Position numbers and translations under genes: made by a program
From: a virus
IMG/VR virus record: IMGVR_UViG_3300022562_002256
Coordinates: 124,001 to 188,000 of that record
Direction: 5' to 3' (one strand)
DNA length: 64,000 bases
The notes under the pieces: model-generated
The model's database searches: none
What the model was told of the DNA's origin: nothing
Seen by the model: only the letters and a program-made list of their open reading frames with translations
Shown: positions 23 through 44,705 of the stretch, piece by piece
Layout of the letters: each line of letters starts with the position of its first letter
Numbering within the stretch: the first letter of the stretch is position 1

Positions 23-652
23 TCATGTCGACGCCCGTTCGGTCCCCGGGGGCGCCTCATCGTCGACCATCTCCCATGCCCGGCTGTAGACCACCTTTGC
101 GAACAGCGCCGCGACGCCGGTCAACTGCTTGTACCTGAACACGGCGTCCTCCTCGATGCCGAGCTTCGTAGCGATGTCCGCGTCAGAAAGCCCCTGCTCG
201 ACCAACTTGCGGATCAGGTCCGCATCCAAGTCCACTTGATGCACCCCGCGCGCTTTATTGAACCTCCACGTGGCAGCAAGCCGCTGCGCCATCGTCAGCC
301 GGAGCATCACCAGGGGCAGGTAGTCACAGTCGAGCCACCCAACACCGAGCACGAGCTTGCGGTGTGCCCCGTCCACCACCACGAACCGCTCCTGGTCATC
401 ATCCCAGATCACCACGATCGGGAAGCAGAAGCCGCTCTCGACGATGTTTTCGACGAGGCACTCGAGCTTATCCCCGCTCACGTTGTTAGGATTATACAGA
501 TTTTCCAGAACAAGTACGGGGCGCACCAGCCAGGTGTTGCAGCACGGCACCTCGATCCGGCCGCGAGTGCGCGAGGTGATGAATACCGGCTCGAGTGCTG
601 CGCGCGCCGCGTGAAACTGCTCAATCGTGTCGATGCACACTACCGACATCAC
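23..652 (-). CDS. ibrB: IbrB-like ParB/sulfiredoxin-fold protein
   Basis: About 209 residues. The DGAHR motif at residues 94-98 is the nucleotide-binding signature of the ParB/sulfiredoxin fold, and a helix-turn-helix-like stretch follows at about 155-175. It lies directly after the PAPS-reductase-like gene, whose stop overlaps its GTG/ATG start; this is the gene pair known as ibrA-ibrB in enterobacterial prophages. Family knowledge: IbrB works with IbrA, and related pairs have been proposed to act in DNA modification or gene control. The biochemical role here is inferred only. The start may be GTG at 652 or ATG at 649. Confidence 0.75.
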   Translation of the reverse strand: MMSVVCIDTIEQFHAARAALEPVFITSRTRGRIEVPCCNTWLVRPVLVLENLYNPNNVSGDKLECLVENIVESGFCFPIVVIWDDDQERFVVVDGAHRKLVLGVGWLDCDYLPLVMLRLTMAQRLAATWRFNKARGVHQVDLDADLIRKLVEQGLSDADIATKLGIEEDAVFRYKQLTGVAALFAKVVYSRAWEMVDDEAPPGTERAST

Positions 653-1791
653 AGCACCTCATCGTAGTAGCGGATCAACTCATCGCGAGGGTCGGGGCGG
701 TTGTCCACCACCAGGTTGTTCTCGTAGTCGTTCAGCGCCACCTGTCGGCACTGCTGTCGAGCCACGTACTCGTTCGTCAGATGGCGGCGGAACCGCTCGA
801 CGAACAGGTGCCTTCGCTCTTCATCGGGGTGGGTGGCCAGCAAGAAGTCCCTGTACGCCACCCACGATCGGAAGTTTTTCGGCAGCTTGGCGACACGGAA
901 CATCTTTGCGTCCCGCCCCGTCTCCGCTGCAAGCGCGATGCCCTTCACGCGCTTGAGGAGTCGGTTGTACGTCGCGGGCTCGAATTCCTGGAGGTCGGTG
1001 AGGCACTTGAACGACTTCTCGTGGATGAGCGACGAGACGCGCATCGCCTCGGGCGCGTACCCCTTCTTGTGCTGGAGGTCGTAGATCTTGGAGTACCTCA
1101 CACCGTGATCGTGGACGTACCGCCAGATGTCGTGGAACTGCCAATCGTAGATCGGGTAGAGTGTCCAGTTTTCCTCTTTTCTGGTGCCCCAGTAGACCGA
1201 GTGATCGCCGATGGTGACTGGGTTCTTCGCGACGGCGCGCCAGCGGTTGATCGACTCTCCGCTCGCCCGGATGCCCACCAGGAACGCGGTCCGCGAGTAG
1301 CACCGCGAGAACGTGTCGATCACGTCGTAGAAGCCGAACCCCTTGTTCTTGTCGCGGATGGTCTCCTTCTCCGGCGGCCAGAATTTCGCCTTGATCGCGT
1401 CGTCGCGTTTGTGGCGCATCCAGGTCTTGTGCTTGCCGGGATCCCACGCGCCGAGCTGCCCTTCCTCGCGACTCGTCGCATTGGTGAGGTTGAACGGGAT
1501 CTGGAGCCACTGTTTGATGGTCACCCCGGGGAACAGCTCCATGAGGTAGGCCACTTGCTCGACGCTGCTCTGGTACATGACCTCCTCGTCGAGGACATGG
1601 ACGCCGATGCGCACTCCCCGCCGCGCCGCCTCCGTCAGGGCGAGGTGCGCGAGCACCGTGCTGTCCTTGCCACCAGACACCGACACGATGATCCCGTTGA
1701 GCGAGCCGTCCGCCACCCGGTCGAACACCCACCCGATGCGACGCTGTGCGGCTTCGAGGACCGACTCACCCGTGAAGTGCTGCCTGGGCAT
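649..1791 (-). CDS. ibrA: IbrA-like PAPS-reductase-family (DUF3440) protein
   Basis: 380 residues with the N-type PP-loop SGGKDST at about 39-45, typical of PAPS reductase/ATP pyrophosphatase enzymes, then a long C-terminal region like DUF3440 (IbrA). I see no ECG(I/L)H motif of true sulfate-assimilation CysH, so a role in nucleic-acid chemistry or regulation is likelier than sulfate reduction. Start chosen at ATG 1791 because a GAGGAG ribosome site lies 8 nt upstream; a longer reading frame exists but lacks support. Overlaps the next gene by 4 nt, so the pair is translationally coupled. Confidence 0.75.
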   Translation of the reverse strand: MPRQHFTGESVLEAAQRRIGWVFDRVADGSLNGIIVSVSGGKDSTVLAHLALTEAARRGVRIGVHVLDEEVMYQSSVEQVAYLMELFPGVTIKQWLQIPFNLTNATSREEGQLGAWDPGKHKTWMRHKRDDAIKAKFWPPEKETIRDKNKGFGFYDVIDTFSRCYSRTAFLVGIRASGESINRWRAVAKNPVTIGDHSVYWGTRKEENWTLYPIYDWQFHDIWRYVHDHGVRYSKIYDLQHKKGYAPEAMRVSSLIHEKSFKCLTDLQEFEPATYNRLLKRVKGIALAAETGRDAKMFRVAKLPKNFRSWVAYRDFLLATHPDEERRHLFVERFRRHLTNEYVARQQCRQVALNDYENNLVVDNRPDPRDELIRYYDEVL

Positions 1792-9703: not shown

Positions 9704-10245
9704 CGCGCCCCCCTCACCGCAAACCCTAGCCGAATCCGCTCCTCGGTGGTCATCGCCCACCGCACCAAGTTGTCGAGCGAGTCCGCGAAATCTGAGTCGC
9801 CATGCGCGCGACAGCCCCACCCGGTGTAGTCGCACCTGGCCCGCACCATGACGTAGCGGCCGTCCTTGAGCAACAGAGCGGCGATCCAAGAAGCATCTTC
9901 CTTCCGGTCTTCGGCGGCACATTCGGCGACATACCATTCATCACCATACCCTTCGTCGGCCGCAATCACCCGCTCGATGTCTGCCACGTCGAAGGGCACA
10001 ACCGAACCAGCGTACCCCTCCGACGGCCGAGTCTGGAACACCGTCGCCCGGGTGGCCCAGTCGTATCGCCACAGCGCCTCCGACAGCGCCGATGCCCAAT
10101 CTCCCGACTCGAAGTCAGCCGGTGATACCTCAGGGATCGGCGCTCCCCAACACGTGTGGCATGGGACCGCCTCGGTGTTCATCCCGCACCCGCCGACGTC
10201 CTCGTCGCTGTACCCGCGCCCCTTGCATTCCCCGCACGCCTTCAC
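9700..10245 (-). CDS. protein with DnaJ-like cysteine motif
   Basis: 181 residues from GTG 10245 (GTGA overlap with the NADAR gene). The start CGECKGRGYS plus CHTCWG later resembles a DnaJ central-domain zinc repeat. The remainder is a typical phage unknown ending in a helix. Role not known. Confidence 0.6.
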   Translation of the reverse strand: MKACGECKGRGYSDEDVGGCGMNTEAVPCHTCWGAPIPEVSPADFESGDWASALSEALWRYDWATRATVFQTRPSEGYAGSVVPFDVADIERVIAADEGYGDEWYVAECAAEDRKEDASWIAALLLKDGRYVMVRARCDYTGWGCRAHGDSDFADSLDNLVRWAMTTEERIRLGFAVRGAR

Positions 10246-10846
10246 GACACCACCCCGTAGCGCAGGATGCGCGCAATGCCGTCGGCGATGTATGTGTCGC
10301 ACGTAGGACACCAGTGCTCTTGGCCCGAACACGGCTCGAGGTAGTCGCCGTCGCACCCATCGAGGCAAGCACCCGGGTCGTGAAGCAAAATCGCCGCCAC
10401 GGCGAGCTCGCGCCGCCTGCGCATGAGCAAGCGCCCGAGCATGTTTTCGCCCGGCGCGGCGCAGTCGGTCCGGGCTCCGCACCGGCAGTCACCCCAAAAG
10501 TTGTCATGCCAGTCGTTGCCCTCGACGAGGATCTGATCTCCTGTGGCGATCAGGCGCTGCGCGAGCGGCGAGCCTTGCTCGAACTTCGAGCGCAGGCAGT
10601 CGCGCATCACACCGACCTTGACCGCTTCCCAGTCGTGGCGGAGCGGGAGCTTTCGCCCCTCGCGCTTGGCTTGTCCAGCGTTGAGGCTGCCGTAGCCGAC
10701 CATGAATGGCTGCCTGAGCCTTGCCACAAGCGTCTTGGCCGCCTGAAAGGCGTGCTCCACGCTGGGGTACTCTGCCCCCTCGAAAAACACACCGGTCTTG
10801 ACGAAGTTCGACAAGAAGGCGTTGTCGCCCCGAAACGACTCGATCA
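10242..10846 (-). CDS. NADAR (YbiA-like) domain protein with Cys-rich tail
   Basis: 201 residues. IESFRGDNAFLSNF at the N-terminus, YPSVEHAFQAAKT and WHDNFWGDC are hallmarks of NADAR proteins, which hydrolyse N-glycosidic bonds of ADP-ribose-like compounds. In phages such enzymes can reverse ADP-ribosylation-based defence. A C-terminal Cys-rich tail related to that of the gene at 6558-7367 is added. Start ATG 10846 places the domain at the N-terminus; an upstream ATG in frame is possible. Confidence 0.8.
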
Positions 10847-10854
10847 TGTTCCAC

Positions 10855-11115
10855 CTACGCGCAATCATCCCCATGGCCCGAGCCCGGTTCCGTCGAGTCC
10901 TCCGGCGACCCGCCGTTTGCCCCCGCATACGCCTTATTCAAGGCGTATGCTCGCTCATACTCGGGGTGCCCGGGACCGTATCCCGCTGGCTGATCGACGT
11001 GGGGCTTTTCACAGCGGCACCAGACAAAGTGACCGGCGATCCCACACGGGTCGCCAGCAGGATACGGGTTCGGGGGGCCGACGACACGAGCCATGGGCAC
11101 AACAAATTTGGTCAC
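10855..11115 (-). CDS. small unknown protein, first gene of the leftward operon
   Basis: 86 residues from GTG 11115 with a GAGG ribosome site. Two cysteines (FVWCRCEKPH) and a disordered C-terminus. It follows the leftward -24/-12 site at 11139-11154 and so heads the operon that runs towards position 23. Confidence 0.6.
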   Translation of the reverse strand: MTKFVVPMARVVGPPNPYPAGDPCGIAGHFVWCRCEKPHVDQPAGYGPGHPEYERAYALNKAYAGANGGSPEDSTEPGSGHGDDCA

Positions 11116-11138
11116 GGTATCACCTCAGCCTCGTTCCA

Positions 11139-11154
11139 TGCACAAACCGTGCCG
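11139..11154 (-). promoter_or_regulatory. -24/-12 (sigma-54-like) site
   Basis: CGGCAC...GTGCA with GG-N10-GC, facing left into the gene starting at 11115. Overlapping promoter region with the divergent site at 11173. Confidence 0.55.
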
Positions 11155-11172
11155 CGACGGGGACAACGCCCC

Positions 11173-11188
11173 CGGCACGGCCGTTGCA
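11173..11188 (+). promoter_or_regulatory. -24/-12 (sigma-54-like) site
   Basis: CGGCACGGCCGTTGCA, GG-N10-GC with a perfect TTGCA -12 box, facing right. The ATG at 11201 lies 15 nt after the -12 G. Confidence 0.6.
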
Positions 11189-11200
11189 CGCTCCCGGGGC

Positions 11201-12019
11201 ATGACCACCGACACTCTCGCCGTCCGCGCCACCGCCCGAGAGCTCGTCGCCGTGTTTCAGGAGGCTGCCGCCACCGTGCGCACGTGTTTCGGCGCGCTGC
11301 ATGCGGCTGAGGCGCGCCTCGCCGCCGCCTTCTCGATGGCGGATGGGTACGCGCGCATCCGGATCCCAGCGACCCGGTGCCACCACTCGGCCGAGTTCGA
11401 CCGGGCTGAAGAGTCCATCGCCGAGATGGCCCGGGACGCGTGGCGCGCCATCGTCGACCGACTCGACCTGCGCCGCCTGCTGTCCGTGGCACGCTATGAG
11501 CAACTCCAGACCGAGTTGGAGAAGGGGGCGCTCCCCGAGCTGACCGAGGACGCTGTGGTCGCCTTCGTACGGCGCTACGTCGACCAGATCGAGGAGATGC
11601 ACGACGAGGCTGTGGCCGAGGTGTTCGAGTTCCTGCGCCCCCGAAGTCTCGGGATGAAGCGCCTCAAGACCAACTCCGAGCTCGAGGTGCCAGCCAAGGT
11701 CATCCTGCGGTTGGTGGCGCGAGGTCCCATGGGGTACTGGCGGCTGCGTTATTGGAAGGTGGCACAAAACCTCATCGCCCTGGAAAACGTCCTCCACGCG
11801 CTTGATGGTCGTGGCATGGTGGCATCCAGCAGTCGGAGCGCCCTACAAACCGCGATCGAGGAGACCACAACGGGGACCGGGGAGACCGACCTGTTCTCGT
11901 TTCGGTGCTGCGAGAACGGGAACCTTCACTTGCGCTTCAAGCGACTCGACCTGCTCGCCCGGCTCAATGCAAAGGCGGGCGGCAAGCGGCTTCGGCCGCC
12001 GACAGCGCCCTGTGCGTAA
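11201..12019 (+). CDS. DUF4942-domain protein
   Basis: 272 residues from ATG 11201. The C-terminal FSFRCCENGNLHLRFKRLDLLARLN is characteristic of DUF4942, a domain often found near or fused to methyltransferases on plasmids and phages. Function is unknown. It converges on csf3, with a hairpin in the 47-nt gap. Nearly leaderless if the -24/-12 site upstream is its promoter. Confidence 0.75.
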   Translation: MTTDTLAVRATARELVAVFQEAAATVRTCFGALHAAEARLAAAFSMADGYARIRIPATRCHHSAEFDRAEESIAEMARDAWRAIVDRLDLRRLLSVARYEQLQTELEKGALPELTEDAVVAFVRRYVDQIEEMHDEAVAEVFEFLRPRSLGMKRLKTNSELEVPAKVILRLVARGPMGYWRLRYWKVAQNLIALENVLHALDGRGMVASSSRSALQTAIEETTTGTGETDLFSFRCCENGNLHLRFKRLDLLARLNAKAGGKRLRPPTAPCA

Positions 12020-12066: not shown

Positions 12067-12828
12067 TCATGCCTCTGCACCGATCCGCACGACCGGCACC
12101 ACGCACCGGGTCCGGGTCGCCTGGTGCCAATAGGGGGCGCGTGTCCCGTCCACACGCTCACACCACGACCCCGGTGCGAGCATGGCCGGGTCTGATATAC
12201 CTCCGTCGCGCACCAAAGGGAGCGACCGCTGCGGCGCCCCCTTCCACACCAGCGATCGGTCGGCGTCGAGCCGCGTGAACTCGTACCCAAGCACCGTCCC
12301 CAGCCCACGGTTGTGGTCCCGGCCGAGCCCGCCGATGAAGTCGAGCAGCGTGGCGACCTTGCCACGGTCGCCGAGCAGCGCGAAGTCCAGGTAGGGCGTG
12401 GTCAGCGTGGCCACGGGAATATTCAGGCTTTTCCCCCAGCCCCCCGAGATGCCCAACCGCTCGATCGCGTAGTGTTCCGCTCGCGCGCGCTTGCGGCGCC
12501 ACCGTTTCGACTCGACGGCGCACCGTGCTGGCCAGCCCCACGACGCGTGCGCGATCGGCCAGCCCCCGATCACCGAGTCCGCCACGGGGATCGGGATGTC
12601 GATCTTCGGCGTGCCGGCCGGAATCTCGGCGAACACGTCGTCGGGCAGCCGGCCGGTGGCGTCAAGCACCACGGCGAATTGGATGGCGCCGTCGATGGTG
12701 ATTGCGTCCCGTCCATCCCACGCAACCGGCGACGCCAGCCACACGCGCACCCGGAACGGCTCGACTCGGCTACAGCCCCACCGCGCGCGAGATCGGGTCA
12801 CCCACGGGGGTTCGACCCAGCCGATCAC
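12067..12828 (-). CDS. csf3: Csf3-like type IV CRISPR Cas5-family protein
   Basis: 253 residues from GTG 12828, overlapping the csf2 stop (GTGA). VRVWLASPVAWDGRDAITID near the N-terminus matches the ferredoxin-like RAMP start of Csf3 proteins, and two glycine-rich loops follow: GISGGWGKS at 126-134 and GGLGRDHNRGLG at 166-177. In type IV complexes the Cas5-like Csf3 caps the 5' end of the guide and processes or binds the crRNA handle. Length fits the family. Csf3 assignment is from motif recognition. Confidence 0.75.
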   Translation of the reverse strand: MIGWVEPPWVTRSRARWGCSRVEPFRVRVWLASPVAWDGRDAITIDGAIQFAVVLDATGRLPDDVFAEIPAGTPKIDIPIPVADSVIGGWPIAHASWGWPARCAVESKRWRRKRARAEHYAIERLGISGGWGKSLNIPVATLTTPYLDFALLGDRGKVATLLDFIGGLGRDHNRGLGTVLGYEFTRLDADRSLVWKGAPQRSLPLVRDGGISDPAMLAPGSWCERVDGTRAPYWHQATRTRCVVPVVRIGAEA

Positions 12829-14384
12829 GACGCGGCACCCCCGTCGCCCTCGCGCCCGCTGCGGCGTCGTCGACCGGCCTTTACGGGCCCCTTGGCGGCG
12901 GGTGGGGCTACCCCCGCGTCGCGCCCGGTCGGCGCGGTTTTGGCGGCACTCTGGCGCCGGCCTGGCCGGTCCTCGAGCAACCACGCGCGCAGCTCATCCC
13001 GGTGTTCCGCCACCCACGCCTGGTACACGGTCGGTGGCGGCAGCGGTGGTGCACTCCCGCCCGGGACATAAGCGACGAACCCCACCGCACCGAGCCCCCG
13101 GGCGTTCGCGGCGCCGACAAACCCGTCCTGCTGGAATTCTACGAGCAGATCGGCCATGCACGCCCCGGCCACCTCGCTCACGCCGTCCAGGCCGATGAGC
13201 TGAAATCTGTGCACCAACTGCACACCGGGGATGAGCACCTCCGTGTTGACCAGCATCTGCACGCCCTTGCAGTCCTCGATGTCCCGGTGGGCGTGGTGCG
13301 TCAGAAGTCTGAGTTGCGTGAGTGTGTCGGCCGGCTTCAGCGACGCCGTGAATTCGGGCAGCGTCATCGCGGCGCCATCGCGCGTCTTGGGCTGCAAGAG
13401 CGCATGCACCATCCACGCGTTCTCGCGGCACAGCAGGATCACGTCATGCACCCGGAGCAGCCCTCGCATGATCTGCCCATCAACAACCCCCGCGAACAAG
13501 TCCCACGCGGGGCATACCGCGCGAGCACGCCGCCGAACCGCCACGTCCACCGCATCGCCGTCCGCCCCCGCCTCAATGGTTCCGCCCGACAGCAGCGCGT
13601 GGGCCCGGGGCGCCGGCAAGTCCTGTGCGGTCAACCCGACAAGCTGCAGCATGCGCCCCATGATGATGTCACGCCAGCATCCGCGGACCGCGTTGCCCGA
13701 CACCAGCGGCACGATCGCGATCTCGCCTGTAACGGGTGACACCACGCGCTGTCGCCGAAACATGGTCACGTTGCCGCTCTTCTCGTCGTGACCATGAGCC
13801 ATGGGGGCGACCAGCGTCCACACGGCGGTGTATGCCCGGGGTGTGAGCAGGTCACCTGGCACCTCTGCGGTCCACGTCTCGGCACTGGCGGAGGCATCGG
13901 CCCACGGGGTGAACAACGCCTCCTCTCCGTCGACCGGCGGCGCCGTTGCGAAGGTGGCGAACAGCGCGGGGCTCTCCGTCACCGCAAGCCGGAGCGCATC
14001 GAAATCAATCGCTTTGCACACCGCTGTCCAGGAGACGGCTGCCGTGGTCTCGTCCGCCTCGGGATGCTCAATCTCCAGCACGCCCGCCGGCACGAGCAAC
14101 CGCGGGATGAGCACGTACACCGGCCGGGCCGTGATCTCCTTGCCTTCGTCGTTCTCAAAAGTCCCGCCCGTCTCATTTATGCTGAACCGCTGGCACAGCA
14201 TCCGGGTGAACTCAAGCGTCGACCGCGCGCTGGTCACCATGGGCACAAGGGCGTCGCGTAGTTCCTCGCTGATGTTGCGGCGGCGCCGCCGAGGAATGCC
14301 CTCCCAATCGACGCGGCGCCACAGTGCCCGGAGCAGGTAGGCCATGAGTGCGGTCGCGGCATGAATCGCAGGCGGTGTCGTCAT
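12825..14384 (-). CDS. csf2: Csf2-like type IV CRISPR Cas7 backbone protein with N-terminal extension
   Basis: 519 residues from ATG 14384, with an AGAGGA ribosome site. The core from about 183 to 440 shows Csf2 hallmarks: APMAHGHDEKSGNVTMFRR, VPLVSGNAVRGCWRD at 226-239, LLSGGTIEAG at 264-273, and a C-terminal GFVGAANARGLGAVGF glycine-rich loop. Cas7-like Csf2 forms the helical backbone on the guide RNA. Residues 1-182, mostly helical, are extra relative to an ordinary Cas7, and the last 75 residues are a low-complexity basic tail. Coupled to csf3. The neighbouring cysH makes this type IV-B-like. Confidence 0.8.
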   Translation of the reverse strand: MTTPPAIHAATALMAYLLRALWRRVDWEGIPRRRRRNISEELRDALVPMVTSARSTLEFTRMLCQRFSINETGGTFENDEGKEITARPVYVLIPRLLVPAGVLEIEHPEADETTAAVSWTAVCKAIDFDALRLAVTESPALFATFATAPPVDGEEALFTPWADASASAETWTAEVPGDLLTPRAYTAVWTLVAPMAHGHDEKSGNVTMFRRQRVVSPVTGEIAIVPLVSGNAVRGCWRDIIMGRMLQLVGLTAQDLPAPRAHALLSGGTIEAGADGDAVDVAVRRRARAVCPAWDLFAGVVDGQIMRGLLRVHDVILLCRENAWMVHALLQPKTRDGAAMTLPEFTASLKPADTLTQLRLLTHHAHRDIEDCKGVQMLVNTEVLIPGVQLVHRFQLIGLDGVSEVAGACMADLLVEFQQDGFVGAANARGLGAVGFVAYVPGGSAPPLPPPTVYQAWVAEHRDELRAWLLEDRPGRRQSAAKTAPTGRDAGVAPPAAKGPVKAGRRRRSGREGDGGAAS

Positions 14385-14491
14385 TCGGTCGTGTCCTCTT
14401 CGTTCTGTCCGTGTTTCGTGGCGAGGTCGACCCGCCGCTTCTATTGTAACACATCCCGCGACGGGTGTGAGGCGGCTGCACACCGGCGCGA

Positions 14492-14507
14492 TGGCACGAT
14501 GCATGCA
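14492..14507 (+). promoter_or_regulatory. -24/-12 (sigma-54-like) site
   Basis: TGGCACGATGCATGCA, GG-N10-GC, facing the rightward gene at 14545 and cysH beyond it. Confidence 0.55.
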
Positions 14508-14519
14508 TGTGGATGCGCC

Positions 14520-14532
14520 CGGGGGGGGGGGA
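14520..14532. repeat. homopolymeric G tract
   Basis: A run of 11 G (about 14521-14531) between the promoter-like site and the ATG at 14545. It overlaps the ribosome-binding region, and an ATG at 14513 lies upstream in another frame, so tract length would decide which frame that ATG joins. Confidence 0.5.
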
Positions 14533-14544
14533 GGACCAACCGCG

Positions 14545-14775
14545 ATGAGACGACGTGTCATTGTCGACCCGTACACGCCCGGTAGACACGTCAATGCGAT
14601 GACCATCGACGATGACACGGGCAAGCGAATTTTCGTCTTCCCCCGCCCCGGCAGCGTGGTCGTAGGTGTCTGTGAGCGCAAGAAGGCAGCGAGCGTTCTC
14701 CTACGAGTCGAGGAGGTTGACGACCTCCTCGCCGCCCTGCGTGACGCGAGCGCCGTGGCAGGAGGCAAACCGTGA
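14545..14775 (+). CDS. small unknown protein upstream of cysH
   Basis: 76 residues from ATG 14545, preceded by GGAGG. Beta-rich start (RRRVIVDPYTPGRHVNAMTIDDD) and a C-terminal helix VEEVDDLLAALRDA. Not recognised. Confidence 0.65.
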   Translation: MRRRVIVDPYTPGRHVNAMTIDDDTGKRIFVFPRPGSVVVGVCERKKAASVLLRVEEVDDLLAALRDASAVAGGKP

Positions 14776-14904
14776 CGCGCGCGAGGGTCGCCGTCCCTGA
14801 CGCGCTGGGACGCCAACGATGGTAAGCGTCTTCTAGACGGGCAGTCCGTCGCGTGGACAGCAAAACCATGGGTCTGGGCGCTGACATACTCGGTGGTCCG
14901 ATGA
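14772..14904 (+). CDS. small protein, probable single-base frameshift
   Basis: GTG at 14772 overlaps the upstream stop (GTGA). The first frame stops after 17 codons, but a +1 shift near 14796 joins a frame reading LTRWDANDGKRLLDGQSVAW to a stop at 14904. The joined product is about 43 residues. One extra C in the assembly would explain it. Confidence 0.4.
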
Positions 14905-14910
14905 CGTCGG

Positions 14911-15879
14911 ATGCGGGGCATGGCTGACCGCTCCCGGTTCGAGTCGACGTGCCCGTGCCCCGCGTGCGGCGGGTGCGCATGCCGGTGGCTGCTGCGTATG
15001 CCCGCTACCGTGTGCCAGTCTGTGCCACGATGTGCCTGCTCACGAGGGTTGGCTGCCGACGAGCCTGTCCTGTGGCCCACCGACGTCGCTGCGTGGGCCC
15101 GGTGGATGGCCGCGGCCCGCATCCATGCCCGCTCGGTGGCTCACCGCCGCGTTGTCGAGCAGGCACGGCGGGCGGTGGACCAGGCGCTTGTCGGCGCGTC
15201 GACGGCATGCGTGATGGTGAGCGCAGGAAAGGACTCGACCATCCTCGCGCACGTGGTGACGGCGTTGATGGGGCGGCACGACGTGACGTTGGTGTCCGAA
15301 AAAGATGACCTCGACTACCCGGGGGAGGAGGAGTACCTGCGGCTCCTCGCCGCGGAGTGGGGGGCAACGCTCCGCGTCGTACGGCCGCGCGTATCTCCAG
15401 CCGAATGGATTCGATCGCGAGGAGCCACACGCGCTCACCGGGCCGCGGATGACATCCACTCACGCGCGGCTGGGCTGAGCAAGGCGTGCTTTTATCGCGT
15501 GGTCGAGGCGGTCAACGCCGAGTACGATGTCGTGATGCTCGGTCTCCGTGCGCAGGAGAGCACGGTTCGACGAATCGTAAGGCACAGGCGGGGGCTGGTC
15601 TACACGCTCGCGTCGGGGCAGCGCCGGGCCAACCCGCTGTTCGATTGGCGAGGGCTTGACCTCTACGCCTACGCCGAGAGCCACAGCATCCCCCTGCTGC
15701 CGCTCTATCGGTGCATCGCGTTCATGCACGAGCGCCGGCCGTGGGACGTGCGTAAGGCGTGGTGGCTCCCCGGGGGCCATTCTACACGCAACGGCGGAGT
15801 CGCGTGGCTCAAGCACTACTTCCCCACACTGTATGATCAACTTTGCGAATGGATCCCAGGCGCGCCCGCCTATCGGTGA
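14911..15879 (+). CDS. cysH: CysH-like PAPS-reductase-family protein of type IV-B locus
   Basis: 322 residues. The PP-loop VSAGKDST at about 101-108 marks an ATP pyrophosphatase/PAPS-reductase fold, followed by DLDYPGEEEYL and a conserved GLRAQES segment. The ECG(I/L)H motif of assimilatory CysH is absent. The N-terminus is Cys-rich (CPCPACGGCACR, then CACS), a possible metal site. A CysH-like gene beside csf2 and csf3 is the defining association of type IV-B CRISPR loci. Start ATG 14911 or 14920. Confidence 0.8.
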   Translation: MRGMADRSRFESTCPCPACGGCACRWLLRMPATVCQSVPRCACSRGLAADEPVLWPTDVAAWARWMAAARIHARSVAHRRVVEQARRAVDQALVGASTACVMVSAGKDSTILAHVVTALMGRHDVTLVSEKDDLDYPGEEEYLRLLAAEWGATLRVVRPRVSPAEWIRSRGATRAHRAADDIHSRAAGLSKACFYRVVEAVNAEYDVVMLGLRAQESTVRRIVRHRRGLVYTLASGQRRANPLFDWRGLDLYAYAESHSIPLLPLYRCIAFMHERRPWDVRKAWWLPGGHSTRNGGVAWLKHYFPTLYDQLCEWIPGAPAYR

Positions 15880-43610: not shown

Positions 43611-44705
43611 TCAAGTCTCATCATCAAACAGCTTGAGCTGCGTCCCCTTCGGAGGAAGCGGCTTGCTCGGCTTCACCGCCGATGGCTCGCTCTGCGCTGT
43701 CTTCTCGGGATGAGCAGCCGCCCACGCGAAGAGATCACCCTGCCGTTCGGCCATCGCCGCAGGCGTCGGAGCGGGCTTGCTCCCCGGCGTAGGGACGGCA
43801 CGAAGCCAGACGCCGGTGCTCGTCTTCCGCGAGGCACCTGGCGCGCCTGGACGCGGCGTGAGGGGTTGCGGACTCGGAGCTTCCCCTTCGGGTTCGGACA
43901 GGCACGCCGCGACGAACTCCTCAGCGCTCCACACGTGGTCCGTGATGCCCGATTGCATCGCGGGGGTCACGCGCAGGGCCATGTGCACACGACAGAAGTT
44001 GAAGAAGCCTACGTACGCGCTGATCGAGGCGCGGTGATGCGCGAGCGTCTTGGACGCGCCCGTGCCTCTCCGGACGAGGCGCCGTAGCTGCGTCCTGAAC
44101 GAGAGGTTGAGCCGCTCCGCGTGCGACGTGGAGCACTCGTCCAGGTTCGGCGCTCCCCAGATCGTGCGCTTCGTCATGCCGGGCCCGTCGCTCTTCAGAC
44201 GACCGCGCTTGCCGCCGTTGAAGCTCTTGACGACCTGCGCATAGTCGATGTCGGTGAACGCCGCTCCGACAGCTCGGGGGTAGCCGGGGTACGCGTCCGT
44301 CGACAGCACGGGGATCGTGACCAGCCTCGCTCGGAGGTCCGCGAGGAACGCGTCCGTGGTCTCTTGGGTGCGCTTACCGACGCGGTACGACACGACGAGC
44401 TTCGCGGTCTTGGCGCTCGCGAGGTACACCCACTGCTCGCCGATCGCGTCGTCATGCACCTCGGGGAGGTTCTTCTCCCTCACCTTGACGTAGCTGTGCA
44501 GCTCGTCCCCTTCGATGTGCTCGATGCTCAAGCCGCGGACGAGGCGGTCATGAACACGGTCGTACCCCTGTCCGATCGCGAGCAAGAGGCGCAGGACCGT
44601 GGGTTGACTGACGTCGGTCAACCTCGATGCGGCACGCACCCCCGCCCCCTCCATGAGGTGCGCAAAGACCTCGGCTTGACGCGACAGCGGAAGCACGTTC
44701 GCCAT
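43611..44705 (-). CDS. IS1-family-like transposase with clamp-binding-like tail
   Basis: 364 residues from ATG 44705. N-terminal HTH (RAASRLTDVSQPTVLRLLLAIG), then DDE-type blocks: HIEGDELHSYVKVRE, LSTDAYPGYPRAV and a later SHAERLN..FRTQLRRL. The C-terminal 100 residues end with GDLFAWAAAHP and GTQLKLFDDE; QLKLF matches the beta-clamp-binding consensus QL(S/D)LF. The same tail occurs in the protein at 47837. Confidence 0.8.
   Translation of the reverse strand: MANVLPLSRQAEVFAHLMEGAGVRAASRLTDVSQPTVLRLLLAIGQGYDRVHDRLVRGLSIEHIEGDELHSYVKVREKNLPEVHDDAIGEQWVYLASAKTAKLVVSYRVGKRTQETTDAFLADLRARLVTIPVLSTDAYPGYPRAVGAAFTDIDYAQVVKSFNGGKRGRLKSDGPGMTKRTIWGAPNLDECSTSHAERLNLSFRTQLRRLVRRGTGASKTLAHHRASISAYVGFFNFCRVHMALRVTPAMQSGITDHVWSAEEFVAACLSEPEGEAPSPQPLTPRPGAPGASRKTSTGVWLRAVPTPGSKPAPTPAAMAERQGDLFAWAAAHPEKTAQSEPSAVKPSKPLPPKGTQLKLFDDET

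What the first reader, a model, noticed from the sequence alone, without database searches (positions are those of the whole stretch)
12067..15879. Type IV-B-like csf2-csf3-cysH locus in a phage
Csf2 (Cas7) and Csf3 (Cas5) hallmarks are legible in two overlapping genes, and a CysH-like gene with a PP-loop stands divergently next to them. That is the gene set of type IV-B CRISPR systems, known mostly from plasmids, with unknown function. Here it sits in a virion-encoding genome, without a recognisable csf1, array or adaptation genes. It may be a minimal RNA-binding filament repurposed by a phage, for competition or DNA modification.
Basis: partly seen in the sequence, partly recalled or inferred. 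Interest (0 to 1): 0.9.

Follow-up and report, generated by a model that had tools for sequence, protein, structure and literature searches.

The report
Phage CRISPR type IV-B without csf1
A large bacterial virus carries a stripped-down, array-less relative of a CRISPR complex (type IV-B) in which two building blocks are fused into one protein and the subunit that in related systems reads target DNA is missing, which makes it a natural test of what this mysterious system really does.

Summary
On the minus strand a Csf2 (type IV Cas7) gene overlaps a Csf3 (type IV Cas5) gene by 4 nt. A CysH-like PP-loop gene stands divergently beside them. The CysH's best database relatives are the CysH of plasmid type IV-B loci, not ordinary phage PAPS reductases. 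The record is a tailed phage (terminase, portal, protease, capsid). It is 198,045 bp with an exact 144-bp terminal repeat, so probably complete.

(1) The first ~170 residues of Csf2 are the small subunit Cas11, fused in frame. (2) csf1 is truly absent: profiles that find csf1 in all other 83 csf2 loci, and in held-out control records, find nothing in this record. There is also no array, cas1, cas6 or dinG.

Type IV-B in viruses is not new: it is published for archaeal viruses, prophages and some phages, and I find it in isolated Skermania phage SPI1 and in many IMG/VR records with terminases. New here are the csf1-less architecture and the Cas11-Csf2 fusion; I found no report of the fusion in the open papers searched.

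Most likely it builds an RNA-loaded filament that needs no PAM/DNA recognition (guide-RNA sponge or counter-defence), with CysH modifying a nucleotide or bound RNA. That function is inferred, not shown.

The parts
12825..14384 (-). cas11-csf2 fusion gene, 519 aa: Cas11-like small subunit (residues ~5-167) + Csf2/Cas7 (residues ~183-476) + basic C-terminal tail
   Evidence: PADLOC typeIV_Cas7 1.9e-42; PDB 7jhy; coding statistics and start context GAAGAGGACACGACCGAATG
13884..14372 (-). Cas11 domain of the fusion (residues ~5-167), helical, with an extra ~45-residue insertion
   Evidence: hhalign score 38.0 to the Cas11 profile vs max 19.0 in 200 shuffles and 21.2 in 162 other genes; PADLOC typeIV_Cas11 E=0.004; AlphaFold2 pLDDT 76, helical
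12957..13838 (-). Csf2 (type IV Cas7) domain, residues ~183-476
   Evidence: AlphaFold2 model; VIA Z=16.7 to IV-B Csf2 7jhy_a and 17.6 to a Cas7 of the IV-A1 complex 8rc3_E; 19 of 23 near-invariant columns kept
12067..12828 (-). csf3 (type IV Cas5), 253 aa, GTG start inside the csf2 stop (GTGA, 4-nt overlap)
   Evidence: PADLOC Csf3_0_IV 2.1e-24; 10 of 10 near-invariant columns kept; junction sequence
15049..15879 (+). cysH-like gene (type IV-B CasCysH), PP-loop SAGKDS; frame open from 14911 but 14911-15048 has atypical codon statistics
   Evidence: PF01507 2.6e-9; IV-B CysH profile 1e-61; groups with IV-B CysH of L068/L069; no Cys in the E. coli CysH C239 column
14443..14471 (-). sigma-70-like promoter match upstream of csf2 (CTCACA-17-TACAAT, extended -10)
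   Evidence: consensus scan, 1 found vs 0.4 expected; weak

Best explanation
This is a minimal, csf1-less variant of the type IV-B CRISPR effector encoded by a tailed phage. Shown: a fused Cas11-Csf2 backbone/small-subunit protein, a Csf3 and a CasCysH-type PP-loop protein, with no csf1, array, cas6, cas1 or dinG in the record. Inferred: the fusion protein polymerises on short host RNAs (as the Mycobacterium IV-B complex does on heterogeneous ~55-60 nt RNA), with Csf3 capping an RNA end and Cas11 held at fixed 1:1 stoichiometry along the filament. Inferred: because Csf1 is the subunit that reads the PAM and steers the displaced strand in IV-A complexes, its loss means that target DNA recognition is not the job here. 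The filament most likely sequesters or marks small RNAs (guide RNAs of host defence or other regulatory RNAs) as a counter-defence, and CysH, which has an ATP-binding PP-motif but no sulfonucleotide-reductase cysteine, supplies an adenylation-type step on the bound RNA or on a nucleotide. Likelihoods: identity as a IV-B derivative ~0.95; csf1 genuinely absent ~0.9; the RNA-sequestration/counter-defence function ~0.4.
For: Identity. Cas11 domain. Absence of csf1: a 40-sequence profile finds nothing above 5.6 bits, while leave-out tests recover every known csf1 at E<=1.1e-10 without homologues of 35% identity or more; a second profile on the unsplit record finds none, but hits all five held-out control records at 1e-23 to 1e-80; 83 of 84 csf2 loci have csf1. 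The record is probably complete: exact 144-bp terminal repeat. The csf2-csf3 4-nt overlap leaves no space or debris for csf1 between them. Constraint: 19/23, 10/10 and 12/13 near-invariant columns are kept in Csf2, Csf3 and CysH. No array, Cas1, Cas6 or DinG helicase. Filament on heterogeneous RNA: PMC7937560. Csf1/Cas8 reads the PAM and guides the non-target strand in IV-A: PMC11519345. The sponge hypothesis and the reductase-dead, PP-motif CysH: PMC8175902. Neighbours look accessory: a NADAR-domain gene and a D12 methyltransferase.
Against: One metagenome-assembled genome with no close relative, so neither selection nor recurrence of the csf1-less form can be measured. Csf1 may be replaced by an unrecognised phage protein or supplied by a resident plasmid. 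Csf2 has lost two residues of the otherwise conserved T-R-x-D-D motif (the alignment is uncertain there), which could mean relaxed constraint. No function has been shown for any IV-B system. The counter-defence role rests on analogy and neighbourhood.
Confidence: 0.42

Rival explanations
1. CysH is the point of the system: the csf2-csf3 RNP is a guide or scaffold that brings the PP-loop enzyme to nucleic acid, so that RNA or the phage genome is chemically marked (for example adenylated) to hide it from host defences. Csf1 is not needed because no DNA duplex has to be opened.
For: cysH is kept beside the two genes although csf1 was lost, and 12 of 13 near-invariant residues are intact. The reductase cysteine is absent throughout the family while the PP-motif is invariant. 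CysH is almost always linked to IV-B (PMC8175902).
Against: No modification has been shown. A second PAPS-reductase-like gene of another kind (649-1791, DUF3440/IbrA type) could serve phage DNA or sulfur chemistry independently.
Confidence: 0.25
2. Competition by borrowed guides: the complex takes crRNAs from host CRISPR systems and silences rival phages or plasmids. The large-subunit role is supplied by a host or plasmid Csf1/Cas8 or by an unrecognised phage protein.
For: IV-A systems act in inter-element competition by transcriptional silencing (PMC11656645). Csf1-less IV-A2 systems exist (PMC11519345). Use of host adaptation machinery is documented for IV-A3 (PMC11656645).
Against: The Mycobacterium IV-B complex does not enrich co-expressed crRNAs (PMC7937560). 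No array, Cas6 or DinG in this record. No csf1-like gene.
Confidence: 0.18
3. Decaying remnant: the phage recently acquired a IV-B operon, lost csf1 and keeps the rest without function.
For: csf1 is present in every other locus. Long branches of Csf2, Csf3 and CysH.
Against: Three intact ORFs with normal codon-position bias, a clean 4-nt translational overlap, and most near-invariant residues kept. No frameshift or csf1 debris.
Confidence: 0.1

Closest known systems
Type IV-B CRISPR-Cas (Mycobacterium sp. JS623 Csf complex, PDB 7JHY; plasmid loci of Rhodococcus, Gordonia, haloarchaea)
   Same: Csf2, Csf3, a Cas11 domain and a CasCysH-type gene; no array, no adaptation genes, no Cas6; carried by a mobile element
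   Different: no csf1; Cas11 fused to the N-terminus of Csf2; encoded by a tailed phage (divergent cysH also occurs in some Rhodococcus plasmid loci)
Type IV-B of Skermania phage SPI1 (KR011061, Orf40-44) and of IMG/VR contigs found here
   Same: IV-B genes inside phage genomes
   Different: those have csf1 and usually a separate cas11
Type IV-B of Bathyarchaeia 'Fuxiviridae' viruses (PMC10848311)
   Same: virus-encoded IV-B with cysH in the locus
   Different: Fuxivirus has csf1 and a mini-array; the host is an archaeon
Cas11-Csf2 fusion clade of IV-B (L022, L028, L051-L056, L060, L062, L063, L066-L069, L071-L075; e.g. Sulfuriferula multivorans prophage)
   Same: N-terminal Cas11 domain fused to Csf2; Csf2, Csf3 and CysH trees place the window beside or within this group with moderate support
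   Different: those loci keep csf1; the window's Cas11 domain resembles free-standing Cas11 more than this clade's, so the fusion may be independent
Type IV-A2 (csf1-less IV-A)
   Same: precedent for a type IV complex without Csf1 (PMC11519345)
   Different: IV-A has DinG, Cas6 and an array; none of these here

Membership tests
Type IV CRISPR-Cas | Csf2 (type IV Cas7), the gene now used to define the type (PMC8175902) | tested here: met
   PADLOC 1.9e-42; fold match to 7jhy_a Z 16.7, E 7.8e-9
Type IV CRISPR-Cas | Csf3 (type IV Cas5) | tested here: met
   PADLOC 2.1e-24; leave-out profile E=1.7e-26
Type IV-B | Csf1 large subunit | tested here: not met
   no hit above 5.6 bits in the record; positive controls and leave-out tests pass
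Type IV-B | Cas11 small subunit | tested here: met
   present as an N-terminal domain of Csf2 by profile; structural comparison inconclusive
Type IV-B | associated CasCysH with PP-motif and without the reductase cysteine | tested here: met
Type IV-B | no CRISPR array, no adaptation genes, no Cas6 | tested here: met
Type IV-B | RNP filament on RNA | not testable with these tools
   needs purification; inferred from homology to 7JHY
Type IV-A | DinG helicase | tested here: not met
   PF13307 absent from the record, found in 10 of 14 control genomes
Type IV-C | Cas10-like HD large subunit in place of Csf1 | not tested
   no search was run with a IV-C large-subunit profile
Ordinary phage PAPS reductase / CysH | catalytic C-terminal cysteine (ECGLH) or membership of phage PAPS-reductase groups | tested here: not met
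   no Cys in the E. coli C239 column; IV-B CysH profile 206 bits (150 bits with close homologues and the query left out) against 65 and 46 bits for PHROG PAPS families

The most novel reading that the evidence does not exclude
A three-gene type IV-B (Cas11-Csf2 fusion, Csf3, CysH) that works without any large subunit: a target-independent RNA filament plus a PP-loop enzyme, used by a phage as a broad counter-measure against RNA-guided or RNA-regulated host functions. It would show that the core of the IV-B function needs neither Csf1 nor guides.
Probability: 0.35. Interest if true: 0.82.

Novelty: new variant of a known kind. Interest (0 to 1): 0.6.

Why it matters
What type IV-B systems do has been open since their discovery. 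A natural variant that dropped the subunit which reads DNA, fused the two filament proteins and kept CysH narrows the question to a three-protein set that can be expressed and purified. It argues that target DNA recognition is not the essential activity. The survey also shows that complete IV-B operons are present in virus records that encode a terminase (25 of 44 checked) and in one isolated lysin-encoding phage (Skermania SPI1) whose genes stand as 'hypothetical', which gives a laboratory system for knock-outs.

Tried and rejected
Close relatives of Csf2, Csf3 and the capsid protein in IMG/VR by single-protein scans: none. Csf2 and Csf3 by tblastn in 50,697 phage records: none; profiles were needed.

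Csf1 hidden in the CysH N-terminus or the Csf2 N-terminus: rejected. The Cys-rich frame upstream of cysH (14911-15048) has atypical codon-position GC and is probably not coding.

A structured guide RNA in the csf2-cysH gap: no unusual folding (z +1.0 and +0.7); no Rfam hits in the window. No short direct repeats or array anywhere in the record.

Structural proof of Cas11: the N-terminal model is helical (pLDDT 76), but Foldseek gave no significant hit. VIA gave only weak, uninformative matches (Z 3.0 to type I-A small-subunit-sized chains of 9cro, below gyrase rows at Z 3.4). 7JHY Cas11 was not among the listed matches.

Single origin of the Cas11-Csf2 fusion: the trees lean to the fused clade (Csf2 78/85 and Csf3 78/84 for fused + window; CysH 99/75 with L068/L069). 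But the window's Cas11 domain matches separate Cas11 (hhalign 33.5) and not the fused clade's domain (14.8, within shuffles), and with long-branch rows included the Csf2 placement is unresolved. Left open.
Full report
OBSERVATION. The window is bases 124001-188000 of a 198,045-bp IMG/VR virus record. On the minus strand an ORF of 519 aa (start 14384, stop 12825) matches type IV Cas7 (Csf2) with PADLOC E=1.9e-42 over residues 188-469 and the Csf2 of PDB 7JHY with E=2.1e-14. The next gene (12828..12067, 253 aa) matches type IV Cas5 (Csf3) with E=2.1e-24. The two overlap by 4 nt (GTGA), a typical coupled operon junction. Divergently, a PP-loop gene (stop 15879) matches the PAPS reductase domain (2.6e-9). 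The record encodes portal, head maturation protease and major head protein and a terminase, and begins and ends with the same 144 bases, so it is a tailed phage and probably complete.

CAS11 IS PRESENT, FUSED. The ~185 residues before the Cas7 domain are not noise: codon-position GC is the same as in the rest of the gene. A profile of Cas11 proteins from other IV-B loci aligns to residues 13-70 with hhalign score 38.0, against a maximum of 19.0 in 200 shuffles and 21.2 in the N-termini of 162 other genes of the record. PADLOC type IV Cas11 models hit it weakly (E=0.004). AlphaFold2 gives a helical domain (pLDDT 76) and a good Cas7 domain that matches IV-A and IV-B Csf2 structures with Z 16-18. 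A fold comparison of the Cas11 domain itself was inconclusive.

CSF1 IS ABSENT. I collected 84 csf2 loci (10 plasmids, one isolated phage, 66 IMG/VR loci with some overlap, 6 genome contigs, and the window). They were found through csf2, so the sample is not biased towards csf1. All others carry csf1 (83 of 83); the window does not. A csf1 profile gives at best 5.6 bits in the record, although leave-out tests recover every known csf1 at 39 bits or more when relatives of 35% identity or more are removed. A second csf1 profile on the unsplit record finds none, while it hits all five held-out control records at 1e-23 to 1e-80. There is no CRISPR array, Cas1, Cas6 or DinG-type helicase.

CYSH IS THE TYPE IV-B KIND. 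In plasmids its tblastn hits are mostly CysH proteins of plasmids that also carry csf2, many within a few kb of it. In 50,697 phage records the single hit is Orf44 of Skermania phage SPI1, which closes a previously unrecognised csf1-cas11-csf2-csf3-cysH operon. The PP-motif is intact (SAGKDS) and the reductase cysteine column holds no Cys in any family member. In a tree it groups with CysH of two loci of the fused clade (99/75), apart from the DUF3440/IbrA-type PAPS gene found elsewhere in the same window (649-1791).

RELATIVES. A clade of about 20 non-redundant loci (IMG/VR contigs, a Sulfuriferula multivorans prophage, several MAG contigs) also has Cas11 fused to the N-terminus of Csf2, but with csf1 kept, usually right behind it. 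Profile comparison of those N-termini with separate Cas11 proteins is significant (E=9e-11). Csf2 and Csf3 trees place the window beside this clade with moderate support (78/85 and 78/84). With long-branch rows kept, the Csf2 placement is unresolved, and the window's own Cas11 domain resembles separate Cas11 rather than the fused clade's. One or two origins of the fusion therefore remain possible. In L047 Cas11 is inserted inside Csf2 instead. Twenty-five of 44 IMG/VR records with csf2 also have a terminase hit, so the viral setting is real for many of them.

MECHANISM. Known: the Mycobacterium IV-B complex is a Csf2 filament with Cas11 on RNA of uniform length and mixed sequence, not on crRNA (PMC7937560). 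In IV-A, Csf1/Cas8 with Csf3/Cas5 reads the PAM, and Csf1 guides the displaced strand (PMC11519345). From this and the gene content I infer that the phage complex is an RNA filament that does not search DNA. CysH, with an ATP-binding PP-motif but no reductase cysteine, has been proposed to do adenylation chemistry (PMC8175902). The neighbourhood (NADAR domain, D12 methyltransferase) looks accessory. I therefore favour counter-defence by RNA sequestration or marking, at about 0.4, with CysH-led modification as the main rival. None of the functional steps is shown. Retention of 19/23, 10/10 and 12/13 near-invariant columns and intact frames argue against a dead remnant.

NOVELTY. Virus-encoded type IV-B is published (PMC10848311; PMC11656645 mentions phages and prophages), and type IV without csf1 has precedents (IV-A2, PMC11519345; PMC8175902). 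I found no report of a Cas11-Csf2 fusion or of a csf1-less IV-B in the open-access papers searched; the two main type IV surveys and the 2022 Cell survey of viral CRISPR were not readable here, so this is not proof of novelty. I rate it a new variant of a known kind.

Noticed in passing
L010 4946-8681 (Skermania phage SPI1, KR011061 Orf40-44): A complete type IV-B operon (csf1, cas11, csf2, csf3, cysH) in an isolated lysin-encoding phage, annotated as hypothetical proteins.
   Followed up: partly
L047 9380-10669: Cas11 is inserted inside Csf2 (after its first ~40 residues) instead of being a separate gene: a second fusion topology.
   Followed up: partly
L051/L057 7590-10918: Sulfuriferula multivorans contig, also listed as a virus in IMG/VR, with a fused cas11-csf2, csf1, cysH and csf3 a few kb from a terminase gene.
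   Followed up: partly
L028 10813-11445 and 13172-13822: Two different csf3 genes in one IV-B locus with a fused cas11-csf2.
   Followed up: no
window 23-652 and 649-1791: A pair resembling IbrB/IbrA (ParB-like protein and a DUF3440 PAPS-reductase-like protein). DUF3440-type homologues lie near type IV-B genes in at least seven other loci (L012, L013, L014, L020, L037, L043, L063); ParB-like homologues were found in six loci of the first set.
   Followed up: partly
window 10242-10874: NADAR-domain protein near the csf genes; possibly an antidote to DNA ADP-ribosylation defence (from general knowledge).
   Followed up: no
window 11138-12019: DUF4942 protein convergent with csf3; a homologue lies directly upstream of the fused cas11-csf2 in L028/L029.
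   Followed up: partly
window 43611-44705: IS1/IS66-like transposase gene inside the phage genome.
   Followed up: no
window 13335-13346 (residues 347-350 of Csf2): The T-R-x-D-D motif conserved in most csf1-containing loci is not recognisable here; it may be linked to Csf1 contact. The alignment is uncertain.
   Followed up: partly
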